A stretch of DNA of 64,000 nt from Deltaproteobacteria bacterium. Lineage in GTDB: Bacteria > Myxococcota > Myxococcia > Myxococcales > 40CM-4-68-19. The stretch is from assembly GCA_005879535.1 (NCBI GenBank), contig VBKI01000063.1, positions 1-64,000 on the forward strand. Direction: 5' to 3'. Under the pieces are notes generated by a model. The model did not search any database, was not told where the DNA came from, and saw only the letters and a list, made by a program, of their open reading frames with translations. Positions 49,937-54,275 of the stretch are shown here, in pieces. Made by a program: the position numbers and the translations under genes. Each line of letters opens with the position of its first letter. Position 1 is the first letter of the stretch.

Positions 49937-50449
49937 TTGTTCGTCCTCGGGCATGTCGGCATCGGGACGCGCCTCCTCTTCGGGCTTCGCCAGCGGCTTC
50001 CTCCGCGTTGGCTCGTCTTGGGATGCCTGCTCCCCGACCTCATCGACAAGCCGCTGTTCTATGGTCTGCTCTGGACGCGAGGCCATCCCGACGCGCTGAT
50101 CAGTGGTTCGCGCAGCATCGCGCACAGCGGACTGTTTCTGCTCGCGCTGCTGGCGCTCGCGCTCGCGTTGCGCCGTCCTGGACCCTGGGCCGTCTTCTCC
50201 GGCGTCGCGACCCACCTCGTGCTCGACATCGGCGGTGAGCTCGTCACCGGCGCGGTGCCGGATGCGTCGATCTGGATCGCGGTCTTGTTTCCTGCCTTGG
50301 GATGGCGTTTCCCCCGGGCGCATTTCGGCTCGCTTCTCGAGCACCTGCGACTGAGCGTGGAAAACGTGTATGCCCTCGGCGGAGAGATCGTGGGCGGAGC
50401 GATCCTGCTCCGAGCCTGGTGGCAGAAGCGGAAGACTCAGTCTTCGTAA
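49937..50449 (+). CDS. DUF457/YdjM-like membrane-bound metal-dependent hydrolase-type protein
   Basis: The 170-residue polytopic protein begins MFVLGHVGIGTRLLFGL and has the family histidines and acids in helices (LLPDLIDKPLFYG, SRSIAHSGLFLLALL, ATHLVLDIGGELV). This resembles the YdjM/DUF457 group described as membrane-bound metal-dependent hydrolases with unproven activity. The start is TTG 49937, the only option before the first helix. It begins directly after hairpin element C. Its last 13 bases overlap the convergent era gene. Confidence 0.68.
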   Translation: MFVLGHVGIGTRLLFGLRQRLPPRWLVLGCLLPDLIDKPLFYGLLWTRGHPDALISGSRSIAHSGLFLLALLALALALRRPGPWAVFSGVATHLVLDIGGELVTGAVPDASIWIAVLFPALGWRFPRAHFGSLLEHLRLSVENVYALGGEIVGGAILLRAWWQKRKTQSS

Positions 50450-51336
50450 CCGGCCCTGCGAAGCCCCTTCGCAGTTCGCGTCCACCCCGGCTCCACGCGG
50501 ACGTGGAGCTGGAGGAACACCTTGGCGCCGAGCAGCCGCTCCATCTCGCGCCGGGCACCCGTTCCAATCTCCTTCAGCCGCGAGCCTCCCTTGCCGATCA
50601 CGATCGCCTTCTGGCTGTCGCGCTCCACGAGAATGGTGGCGGCGATGCGGACGAGCCCGCGGGCGCCGGTCTCGCGCTCGGATTCGTCGAACAGGTCGAT
50701 CAGGACCGCCGTGCTGTAGGGAACCTCCTGCCCGGTGTGGCGCAGGAGCTGCTCGCGGACCAGCTCGGCGCAGAGATCGCGCTCTTGCATGTCCGTCCAC
50801 TGCTCCGCGGGAAACATCGCCGGTCCCTCCGGCAGGTGCGCAATCAGCGCATCGACGAAGCCGTCGACGTTGTCACCCCTGAGCGCCGACAGCGGGTACA
50901 CGTCGGTCCAGGCGTGCAGGTCCTTCCAGCGATCGATCAACGGAAGAAGCTGCGCCCGTGGCACCGCATCGATCTTGTTGATCACCAGCAGCGTCGGTTT
51001 CCCGGCCGCTTTCACCTGATCGAGCGCCTTGCGGGCCGCGGCGTCGACGGCCGGCGGCCCTGCCTCGATGAGGAAGAGAGCGAGATCCGCGTCGGCGAGC
51101 GACTGCAGTGCCCGCTGGACCATGCGGGCATTCAGGCCACCCTTGGCGGTGTGGAGGCCAGGCGTGTCTAGCAGCGCGACCTGGGCATCCGGCCGCGTGA
51201 TCACCCCGAGAATACGGCCGCGGGTGGTCTGCGGCTTGGGGCTGATGATGGCGAGTTTCTGGCCGATCAGGCGGTTGAGCAGCGTGCTCTTGCCGACATT
51301 GGGGCGGCCGACGATTGCGACGAAGCCTGCCCGCAT
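50437..51336 (-). CDS. era: GTPase Era
   Basis: Era binds 16S rRNA during 30S maturation. The 299-residue protein has G1 GRPNVGKSTL, the G2 region KPQTTRGRILG, G3 DTPGLH and G4 NKID. The C-terminal KH domain carries VIGKGGSRLKEIGTGARREM. Start ATG 51336 begins at the first strand (MRAGFVAIVGRPN). The unit upstream, on the same strand, is the cyclophilin gene, with hairpin element A between. The 3' end overlaps the DUF457 gene by 13 bases tail-to-tail. Confidence 0.95.
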   Translation of the reverse strand: MRAGFVAIVGRPNVGKSTLLNRLIGQKLAIISPKPQTTRGRILGVITRPDAQVALLDTPGLHTAKGGLNARMVQRALQSLADADLALFLIEAGPPAVDAAARKALDQVKAAGKPTLLVINKIDAVPRAQLLPLIDRWKDLHAWTDVYPLSALRGDNVDGFVDALIAHLPEGPAMFPAEQWTDMQERDLCAELVREQLLRHTGQEVPYSTAVLIDLFDESERETGARGLVRIAATILVERDSQKAIVIGKGGSRLKEIGTGARREMERLLGAKVFLQLHVRVEPGWTRTAKGLRRAGYED

Positions 51337-51344
51337 CTATTGCC

Positions 51345-51399
51345 TGTACACGCCACAACGTAGACGCATACCCGCACCCTCCGGGTGCGGGAGCGTCTA
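51345..51399 (+). repeat. Hairpin element, copy A
   Basis: TGTACA (51345-51350), 10-base linker, outer arm TAGACGC (51361-51367), linker ATA, inner arm CCCGCACCC (51371-51379), loop TCC, inner arm GGGTGCGGG (51383-51391), linker A, outer arm GCGTCTA (51393-51399). Both stems are perfect. Read on the minus strand the right outer arm supplies the TAG stop codon (51399-51397) of the cyclophilin gene. The TGTACA end is 8 bases from the era start codon. There is no T-run, so it is not a standard terminator. Confidence 0.78.
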
Positions 51400-52059
51400 G
51401 GGCACCTTCTCGCTGCGGACGATCTCGATGTGGTCCAGCTTCGTCTGCGCGTTGCCGGCGCGTGCGATCTGCGGCACCAGATCCTGCCCTTTCACCACCT
51501 CGCCGAAGATGGTGTGCCGGTTGTTCAGGTGCGGCGTCGGCACCTCGGTGATGAAGAACTGCGACCCGTTGGTATTCGACCCCGAATTGGCCATGGCGAG
51601 CAGTCCAGGGCGATCGAACTTCTTCCCGCTCTGGAACTCGTCCTCGAAGCGGTAACCGGGGCCACCGGTTCCCGTCCCCAGCGGATCTCCGCCCTGGATC
51701 ATGAACTGCGGGATCACCCGGTGGAAGACGGTTCCGTCATAAAGCTTCGCCTTGCTCTTCTGACCGTTGCGCGGATCCACCCACTCCTGCTTGCCGGTTG
51801 CCAGACCGACGAAGTTCGCCACCGTCTTGGGCGCCTCCTTCTCGAACAGCTTGACGACGATGTTGCCGCGGCTGGTCTGGAACACGGCGTAGAGGTCGCC
51901 GGGACCCTGGGGAATGTTCGCCATCGAGATCACGTCCTTTGCTTGGAGCTCACGCGGAGCCGCCTTGGGCTGCAGGGGAGTGGGTGTGGATGCCGGCGCG
52001 GCGTTGTCCTTGCACGATGCCAGGGCGACGGCGAGGAAGAGCGCAGTGCGTAGGCGCAT
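51397..52059 (-). CDS. Cyclophilin-type peptidyl-prolyl isomerase lipoprotein
   Basis: A lipoprotein signal ([16 protein letters not shown], lipobox Cys16) and a Pro/Ala/Thr linker precede a cyclophilin domain: [24 protein letters not shown], the active-site [45 protein letters not shown]. It has 220 residues. It likely assists folding of envelope proteins from a membrane-anchored periplasmic position. The stop codon lies in hairpin element A; era follows on the same strand. An upstream open frame of over 600 codons on this strand is GC-driven antisense of the RNase III gene. Confidence 0.9.
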
Positions 52060-52106: not shown

Positions 52107-53321
52107 TCAGCCCGGGGCCCAGCGCCGGGCGCGCTCCAGCAGGCCCTCGACCAGCGCCGCCTTCGCGTCCGAGTAGCGCAAGAGCGTCGTCGCTCCCGAT
52201 GCGATCGCTTCCCGCTTGCCGGACGCGTACCGGCCGCGCTCTTCCGGGTGGGCGCGGAGATAGTCGCGGAGCACGAGCGCGTCTCGCCACAGCGGGCCAC
52301 CCCGCTCCACGACCTGCGCGTTGAACGATACGGGTCCACGCTTGCGAAAGTACAGGCGGCCGGGTACTCCGGCCTCGCCGAAGGCCTCGTAATCGGGAAT
52401 GCGCAGCGAAGGCGCCAGCTCCCGGACGCCGATCAGCAGGTCGATGATGGCCTTGCCGTCGAGGCCGGGAACGGCCGTGCTGCCGATGTGCTCGATGTCG
52501 GCGTCCACCAGGGCGGCGCGCAGGCGCGCGCTCTCCTCCGCCGCGAGGTCCGGCCAGGCGGAGTCGCTCGGGACGAGGGAAATTGCCTCGTCGAGCAGCG
52601 CGCGCTCCAGCGCCTGGGGCGTCTCGAGCGCTGCCCGGGCCGCGGCCTGTTCCGCCTCCTTCTTGCTGCGTCCGCTGCCGCGGCCGAGAGGAAACCCATC
52701 GAGCCGCACCTCCACTTCGAAGGAGCGCGCGTGGTCGGGGCCGGCGACGGAGAGCACCTTGTACTGCGGCGTCCGGCGCCGGCTCTGGAAGAGCTGCTGC
52801 AGCTCCGTCTTCGGATCGCGAGCCAGGAGCCCTTGATCGAAGAGCGGCGCCAGCAGCCGGTCCACCACCTCCTGGGTGCGCTCCAGGCCGCAGGAAAGCA
52901 GGACTGCGGCAACCACCGCCTCCAGCGCGTCGGCGAGACGCGCCGCATTCTCCCGGCCGCCGCTGCGCTGCTCGCCGCGACCGAGCAGCAGGAGATCTCC
53001 GAGGCCGAGACCTCGAGCGACGATGGCCAGAGATTCCTCCCGGACGAGGCCGGCCCGAAGCCGGGTCAGCTCGCCCTCGGACGCCTCCCGAAACCGCTCG
53101 TAGACCCGGCGCGCGATGAGAAACCCGAGGATGGCGTCGCCGAGGAATTCCAGCCGCTCGTTCGAGCGCAGCACCGGGCGGCCCGCCGACAGCGACCTCT
53201 CGTGCGCGTAGCTTCCGTGGCGCAGCGCCTCCAGGGCGAGCTGGGGATCGAGCGATCCTTCGGGAAGACCGAGCCGGACGTTGAGCAGCGCCACCCGCTG
53301 CTGGTCGTTCAGCTCGGCCAT
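52107..53321 (-). CDS. rnc: RNase III fused to a C-terminal GrpB (UPF0157) domain
   Basis: Residues 1 to about 150 are the RNase III catalytic domain with the signature [21 protein letters not shown] and the second acidic cluster [14 protein letters not shown]. Residues about 165-235 are the dsRNA-binding domain ([20 protein letters not shown], then [18 protein letters not shown]). A GrpB/UPF0157 domain follows from about 243 to the end: [62 protein letters not shown]. It has 404 residues, about 160 more than normal RNase III. GrpB domains are nucleotidyltransferase-fold proteins of unclear role. The frame is continuous, with no hidden start between domains that has a ribosome-binding site visible. 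The fusion is the notable feature. Confidence 0.88.
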
Positions 53322-53330
53322 CGGAGAAGA

Positions 53331-54275
53331 CTACAGCCGCGCCGCTTCGTCCGCCACGCTGTAGGGATCGGTCTCGCGGCGGGCGATGCGCAGCGCGAGA
53401 TCGTCGAGATGGGCGCCTTCCTGCGTCAGCTTCTCCACCGCGACCTTGAGCAGGCGGTCGCGGAGCACCTCGACCAGCTCGTTCTTCGCCCTCCGCGTCT
53501 CGCGCTGCAAAAGGCCTGGGCCGGACTTGAGGAACCGGTAGTGCGCCTCGATCGCGCTCCATACCTCGGCGACTCCCTCGTTGCGCGAAGCGACGCACTT
53601 GACGATGGCGATCTCGTGACCCGCGTCCTTCCCGACGACGTGGTTCAGCTCGAGCATCGAGCGCAAATCGCGGACGGTGCGGTCGGCGCCTTCCCGATCG
53701 CTCTTGTTGACCGCGAAGAGGTCGGCGACCTCGAGGATGCCGGCCTTGATGGCCTGGATGTCGTCGCCGAGCCCCGGCACCACGACCACCACCGTCGTGT
53801 GCGCCAGGCGGCAGACCTCCACCTCGTCCTGTCCGACGCCCACCGTCTCGATCAGGATCACGTCCTTGCCCATCGCATCCAGCACGCGGGTGCAATCGGA
53901 CGTCGCCCGGGAAAGTCCGCCGAGCTGACCGCGGGTCGCCAGCGAACGGATGAACACGCCCGGATCGAGCGCATGGTCCTGCATGCGGATGCGATCGCCC
54001 AGGATCGCCCCTCCGGTGAACGGGCTCGTGGGATCGACGGCGAGGACGCCCACCGTCTTTCCCGCCGCGCGCAGGAGCGCGACCAGCCGATCGACCAGGG
54101 TGCTCTTGCCCGCACCGGGATTACCTGTGATGCCGACGATCTGCGCGCGACCGGTGCGCGGCCAGATCTCGCGGAGGACAGCTTCCGCCTCGGGTTGCGC
54201 GTCGTCGATCTGCCGCATCAGCCGCGCGGCGGCGCGGACGTCCCCGGAGACGATGCGTTCGGCGACGGCGCTCAT
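53331..54275 (-). CDS. meaB: MeaB/ArgK-type GTPase (methylmalonyl-CoA mutase chaperone)
   Basis: This P-loop GTPase has 314 residues, with Walker A GNPGAGKS at 51-58, [20 protein letters not shown] (a diagnostic MeaB block), [17 protein letters not shown] and [11 protein letters not shown]. MeaB guards methylmalonyl-CoA mutase against inactivation and helps load cobalamin. The mutase itself is not in the window. The gene overlaps the acyl-CoA dehydrogenase stop (ATGA), and a propionyl/acetyl-CoA-type carboxylase lies 4 kb upstream, consistent with a propionate or branched-chain degradation neighbourhood. Confidence 0.9.

What the first reader, a model, noticed from the sequence alone, without database searches (positions are those of the whole stretch)
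52107..53321. RNase III with a C-terminal GrpB (UPF0157) nucleotidyltransferase-fold domain
A complete catalytic domain and dsRBD are followed in frame by an apparently complete GrpB domain ([39 protein letters not shown]). The pairing links double-stranded RNA cleavage with a nucleotidyltransferase-like fold and could add or modify nucleotides on processed ends, or modulate RNase III. I do not know this architecture as a described one.
Basis: partly seen in the sequence, partly recalled or inferred. Interest (0 to 1): 0.62.

Follow-up and report, generated by a model that had tools for sequence, protein, structure and literature searches.

The report
RNase III fused to GrpB domain
In one small lineage of soil myxobacteria, the only gene for the RNA-cutting enzyme RNase III has gained a whole extra domain of unknown function (GrpB); the fusion is real and has been kept by selection for a long time, but the extra domain lacks most of the residues needed to add nucleotides, so it more likely steadies or regulates the enzyme.

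Summary
One 404-aa minus-strand ORF (53321→52107) encodes a complete RNase III (catalytic domain plus dsRBD) followed in frame by a complete GrpB/UPF0157 domain. It is not a sequencing or annotation artefact: the same fusion is intact in four other species of two genera at 62-82% identity, and in a sixth that the assembly splits within it. It sits in the ordinary ACAD-meaB-rnc-PPIase-era locus. It is the only rnc, and the only GrpB, in a complete genome. Sister genera of the same family have a normal rnc and no GrpB. No other Myxococcota rnc match seen spans both domains. One fusion event, drawing on a standalone GrpB like those of a large-genome genus of the same order, explains the data. Both halves are under purifying selection. 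The functional reading (adding nucleotides to cleaved ends) is not supported. The GrpB half has the nucleotidyltransferase fold and GS motif, but only one of three catalytic carboxylates, and it has lost a histidine that 24 of 26 standalone GrpBs keep. The closest studied precedent is GrpB fused C-terminally to mycobacterial CoaE, where it is needed for soluble folding. Best explanation: housekeeping RNase III carrying a ligand-binding or folding module, not a second catalyst; mechanism untested.

The parts
52107..53321 (-). Fused gene rnc-grpB, 404 aa, ATG to TGA
   Evidence: no stop and no conserved internal start
52851..53249 (-). RNase III catalytic domain (aa 25-157)
   Evidence: PF14622 104.5 bits, only such match in the genome
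53136..53162 (-). RNase III signature NERLEFLGD (aa 54-62); with E82, D131 and E134 all six acidic residues known from E. coli RNase III are present
   Evidence: R56, E58, G61, D62, E82, E134 invariant in 29 aligned RNase IIIs; correspondence to E. coli residues from own knowledge
52623..52814 (-). double-stranded RNA-binding domain (aa 170-233)
   Evidence: PF00035 74.8 bits; KKEAEQAAA invariant
52584..52622 (-). linker between dsRBD and GrpB (aa 234-246), predicted helix 235-243
   Evidence: present in all five intact fused proteins at 54-77% identity; model
52131..52583 (-). GrpB / UPF0157 domain (aa 247-397), complete
   Evidence: PF04229 121.5 bits, profile 2-159/159; only GrpB in the genome; model pLDDT 94
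52476..52490 (-). GrpB motif HIGST (aa 278-282), equivalent of the nucleotidyltransferase G-S motif
   Evidence: H, G, S, T present in 26 of 26 standalone Myxococcota GrpBs and 6 of 6 fused
52440..52442 (-). Asp294, the single conserved carboxylate of the expected DxD pair (partner position is Leu296)
   Evidence: D in 26/26 standalone and 6/6 fused; D+2 acidic in 5/26 standalone and 1/6 fused
52314..52316 (-). Gln336, at a position that is His in 24 of 26 standalone GrpBs
   Evidence: fused proteins read Q,Q,Q,H,R,Q
53331..54275 (-). meaB-like GTPase gene directly upstream (9 bases from rnc)
   Evidence: same order in all fused relatives that could be read; name from sequence resemblance, not from a family search
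51397..52059 (-). peptidyl-prolyl isomerase-like gene directly downstream
   Evidence: synteny; name from sequence resemblance
50437..51336 (-). era GTPase gene
   Evidence: synteny; name from sequence resemblance

Best explanation
The gene encodes the cell's ordinary housekeeping RNase III with a second, covalently attached domain. SHOWN: one polypeptide, an intact RNase III with its acidic residues, a complete GrpB domain, a distribution consistent with a single origin in one lineage, and purifying selection on both halves. INFERRED: a standalone GrpB gene, of the type still found in a large-genome genus of the same order, landed between rnc and the PPIase gene in an ancestor of two sister genera and was joined in frame to the end of rnc. 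INFERRED: the GrpB half is not a working nucleotide-adding enzyme. It keeps a set of conserved polar residues (HxGST, K, D, RD..R, Y, K, Y, K), probably a ligand pocket, but not the metal-binding carboxylate triad. It acts in cis on RNase III, either by helping it fold and stay soluble, as GrpB/UPF0157 does for mycobacterial CoaE, or by sensing a nucleotide-like ligand that tunes cleavage. Folding/stability is given somewhat more weight because it is the only function found reported for a fused GrpB.
For: Intact fusion in G000, G006, G002, G001 and G007. In G004 one contig ends inside rnc after meaB and another begins inside GrpB before PPIase-era, so it is a sixth case split by assembly. Only rnc and only GrpB in a genome of 100% estimated completeness. 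The six GrpB halves form one group (100/99), with the standalone GrpBs of G086/G088/G089 (52-54% identity) as nearest relatives (99/95). In the rnc tree the fused genes separate from all unfused ones with support 100. dN/dS is below 1 in all ten pairs for each main domain: GrpB 0.20-0.51, catalytic domain 0.13-0.26, dsRBD 0.08-0.56. 18 of 20 columns conserved in standalone GrpBs are kept. Only one of three catalytic carboxylates. Precedent: without its C-terminal UPF0157 the M. tuberculosis CoaE kinase domain is insoluble, and regulatory, methyltransferase and phosphopantetheinyl-transferase roles were tested and excluded (PMC2765170).
Against: Nothing here tests binding, folding or activity. 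Unfused RNase IIIs of sister genera, up to 65% identical over the shared part, do without GrpB, so it is not generally needed for folding. Strong conservation of polar residues is more than a pure solubility tag would need. The CoaE study also found that GST could replace the domain, so that role may be non-specific. AF2 does not fix the placement of GrpB relative to RNase III (pTM 0.58), so no cis contact is shown.
Confidence: 0.5

Rival explanations
1. RNA-end modifying fusion: RNase III cuts dsRNA and the GrpB half adds or transfers nucleotides to the new ends.
For: GrpB has the nucleotidyltransferase fold with the G-S motif; after 2NRK and 6N39 the nearest solved folds are RNA uridylyltransferases URT1, TUT1, TUT4, TUT7 and Cid1. 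One other nucleotidyltransferase-fold enzyme, the RelA/SpoT synthetase, works while lacking one acidic residue (PMC11646218).
Against: Only one of three carboxylates is conserved; the fold matches to the uridylyltransferases are weak (E about 1e-3 to 1e-2, TM-score about 0.36-0.5); no RNA-tailing activity for any GrpB was found in the papers searched.
Confidence: 0.08
2. The GrpB half keeps its own unknown reaction on a small molecule, unrelated to RNA, and is joined to RNase III only by a chance gene fusion in a constitutively expressed locus.
For: 18 of 20 conserved GrpB columns kept, purifying selection; standalone relatives exist as solitary genes away from rnc; the fused species lack another GrpB.
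Against: A histidine kept by 24 of 26 standalone GrpBs is lost in five of six fused proteins; the fusion has lasted through a split of two genera, which favours a reason to be joined; G007 shows a shortened, fast-changing GrpB.
Confidence: 0.27
3. A decaying passenger: GrpB was fused by accident and is slowly degenerating without function.
For: GrpB changes faster than the RNase III half, and G007 has deletions in it.
Against: dN/dS clearly below 1 for GrpB in all ten pairs; frame and motif intact in every case that could be read.
Confidence: 0.12
4. Artefact: missed stop codon or assembly error joining two genes.
For: All relatives come from draft assemblies, several of them labelled as metagenome-assembled.
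Against: Same junction in five assemblies, three of them public records (L033-L035), with a conserved linker.
Confidence: 0.01

Closest known systems
Bacterial RNase III (rnc; TIGR02191)
   Same: Complete catalytic domain, all acidic residues, dsRBD, the usual rnc-PPIase-era neighbourhood of this order, only copy in the genome
   Different: About 170 extra residues forming a GrpB domain; 77 of the 80 nearest rnc genes of the genome collection carry no such domain, and those measured stop soon after the dsRBD
CoaE-GrpB (UPF0157) fusion of actinobacteria: M. tuberculosis CoaE, structure 6N39 of M. paratuberculosis, model NF002879/PRK03333
   Same: GrpB joined C-terminally to an unrelated housekeeping enzyme; GrpB half matches 6N39 by sequence profile and fold, and NF002879 by sequence
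   Different: Partner is a kinase of CoA biosynthesis, not RNase III; separate fusion event
Standalone GrpB proteins (PF04229; structure 2NRK of Enterococcus faecalis)
   Same: Fold, HxGST motif and 18 of 20 conserved columns
   Different: Not fused; most keep a histidine that this clade has lost
RNA terminal uridylyltransferases (URT1, TUT1, TUT7, Cid1)
   Same: Distant similarity of fold, G-S motif
   Different: Catalytic triad not present here; no sequence-level match

Membership tests
Bacterial RNase III | Score over the curated RNase III cut-off | tested here: met
   TIGR02191 210 bits against 166.25
Bacterial RNase III | Signature NERLEFLGD and conserved acidic residues | tested here: met
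   E58, D62, E82, E134 invariant over 29 sequences; E55 and D131 present
Bacterial RNase III | C-terminal dsRBD | tested here: met
   PF00035 74.8 bits
Bacterial RNase III | Cleaves dsRNA as a homodimer | not testable with these tools
   needs an assay; a dimer was not modelled
GrpB / UPF0157 | Full-length match to PF04229 over cut-off | tested here: met
   121.5 bits against 25.5, positions 2-159 of 159
GrpB / UPF0157 | Family-conserved residues | tested here: met
   18 of 20 columns kept; Gly and His changed to Asp and Gln
GrpB / UPF0157 | GrpB fold | tested here: met
   2NRK first hit, E 4.6e-11, TM-score 0.78
Catalytically competent nucleotidyltransferase | Three acidic residues that bind two metal ions | tested here: not met
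   One conserved Asp; DxD partner Leu; no conserved acid on the third strand; feature as defined in PMC11646218
Catalytically competent nucleotidyltransferase | Incorporation of NMP from NTP | not testable with these tools
   needs an assay
CoaE-GrpB fusion | Dephospho-CoA kinase domain N-terminal to GrpB | tested here: not met
   Only the GrpB part of NF002879 matches, 70.8 bits against a cut-off of 215

The most novel reading that the evidence does not exclude
A bacterial RNase III that carries its own terminal-transferase-like module and marks or repairs the RNA ends it makes, a one-protein cut-and-tail enzyme.
Probability: 0.06. Interest if true: 0.8.

Novelty: new variant of a known kind. 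Interest (0 to 1): 0.42.

Why it matters
RNase III is among the most conserved and best-studied RNA-processing enzymes of bacteria, and a lasting two-genus fusion on the only copy is unusual. GrpB is widespread, with no known activity in the papers found. Tethering it to an enzyme with simple quantitative assays, with natural unfused RNase IIIs from sister genera as controls, makes the long-open question of what GrpB does testable. Together with CoaE-GrpB it would show whether GrpB is a general C-terminal helper of unrelated enzymes.

Tried and rejected
Missed stop or frameshift: rejected, same junction in five assemblies. Separately initiated GrpB from an internal start: rejected, no conserved start codon before the motif and no Met in the GrpB part of the window protein. 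A second, normal rnc elsewhere: rejected. Phage or defence origin: no PADLOC match; two PHROG families of unknown function match the two halves separately; close GrpB relatives not found in viral contigs, only 10 distant ones. Plasmid copies of the fusion: none covers 80% of the query. First structure alignment A2 was discarded because the viral standalone GrpBs were aligned onto the RNase III half. One paper with a broad classification of the nucleotidyltransferase fold was not held.

Full report
OBSERVATION. The ORF lies at exactly the given coordinates, on the minus strand, 404 aa from ATG to TGA. Pfam finds the RNase III catalytic domain (aa 25-157), the dsRBD (aa 170-233) and a full-length GrpB domain (aa 247-397, 121.5 bits, positions 2-159 of 159), each far over its cut-off; NCBIfam calls it RNase III at 210 bits. 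The RNase III half keeps all the acidic residues of the active site as known from E. coli (correspondence from own knowledge; invariance). It is the only RNase III and the only GrpB in the genome of 5.16 Mb, estimated 100% complete.

IS IT REAL. A search of 60 related genomes found the same full-length fusion at 82, 75, 72 and 64% identity in G006, G002, G001 and G007; the last is a different genus of the same family. Reading the frames through shows no stop between dsRBD and GrpB in any of them. In G004 the rnc contig ends inside the gene and another contig begins inside GrpB; the flanks (ACAD-meaB-rnc | GrpB-PPIase-era-miaB-der) show that this is the same gene cut by the assembly. No conserved internal start codon precedes the GrpB motif, and the window's GrpB half holds no methionine, so it is made as one chain.

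ORIGIN. Neighbouring genes are the same with and without the fusion: ACAD, meaB, rnc, PPIase, era. In the sister genera g3 and g4 rnc ends normally and no GrpB is found in those genomes. In a search of 195 Myxococcota genomes the only listed matches spanning both domains are in genera g1 and g2 of this family; the list was cut at the weak end. GrpB occurs in 46 of 193 Myxococcota genomes. The six fused GrpB domains form one group; the nearest relatives are standalone proteins in G086, G088 and G089 (52-54% identity), from a large-genome genus of the same order. In G088 that gene sits alone, among ORFs that look transposon-like by eye (not followed up). In the rnc tree the fused genes separate from unfused ones with support 100; in the tree of four neighbouring genes the same split has support of only 37, so the species relation of g2 is not firmly settled. 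The simplest account is one insertion and fusion in the common ancestor of g1 and g2.

SELECTION. Pairwise dN/dS (NG86) over the five complete genes is 0.20-0.51 for GrpB, 0.13-0.26 for the catalytic domain and 0.08-0.56 for the dsRBD. Synonymous distances of 0.4-1.3 with high GC at third positions make the values rough, but all are below 1. GrpB is maintained, though under looser constraint; G007 has shortened loops.

WHAT THE GRPB HALF CAN DO. AlphaFold2 gives a confident GrpB domain (pLDDT 94) and a confident RNase III, with uncertain placement of the domains relative to each other (pTM 0.58). The best solved matches are GrpB 2NRK and the CoaE-GrpB protein 6N39; after these come RNA terminal uridylyltransferases and family X polymerases with weak scores, in line with the nucleotidyltransferase fold (PMC7288161 lists GrpB among fold relatives). 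That fold works through three acidic residues (PMC11646218). Counting against 26 standalone Myxococcota GrpBs, the window keeps 18 of 20 columns conserved in at least 85% of them, including H-x-G-S-T, K, D, R-D..R, Y, K, Y. The DxD partner is acidic in 5 of 26 standalone and 1 of 6 fused proteins, and the histidine kept by 24 of 26 standalone proteins is kept in only one fused protein; the three nearest standalone relatives also lack it, so this loss probably came before the fusion. A nucleotide-adding enzyme of the usual kind is therefore unlikely; a binding or folding module with a conserved pocket fits better. That the conserved residues form a pocket is inferred from the family, not measured on the model.

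PRECEDENT. M. tuberculosis CoaE carries GrpB (UPF0157) at its C-terminus. Without it the kinase domain is insoluble; with it, or with GST at the same place, it is soluble and active, and several catalytic or regulatory roles were tested and excluded (PMC2765170). No paper among those held joins RNase III and GrpB.

VERDICT. Real, conserved and, in the sources available here, undescribed; a new variant of RNase III architecture. Mechanism: housekeeping RNase III with a cis-acting, probably non-catalytic GrpB module (0.5); independent small-molecule function (0.27); decaying passenger (0.12); RNA-end modification (0.08).

Noticed in passing
L033:6365-7492: In one fused relative an ORF with long collagen-like Gly-x-y repeats (GPQGPQGPQG...) has been inserted between rnc-grpB and the PPIase gene.
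   Followed up: no
L034:6190-8331: In another fused relative a 713-aa ORF, apparently a secreted hydrolase by eye, lies at the same spot between rnc-grpB and PPIase; the spot seems to accept insertions.
   Followed up: no
L035:5706-6143: The GrpB half of G007 is shortened in two loops, has DLD instead of DLL and evolves faster (long branch 0.88), perhaps the start of decay or a changed ligand.
   Followed up: partly
L200:3658-4209: The nearest kind of standalone GrpB, in a 12.7 Mb genome, sits among ORFs that look transposon-like by eye, which suggests that this GrpB subfamily is mobile.
   Followed up: no
L189-L198: Ten viral contigs of IMG/VR encode distant GrpB proteins (25-43% identity), and an uncharacterised phage protein family, phrog_24971, matches the GrpB half; their role in phages is unknown.
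   Followed up: no
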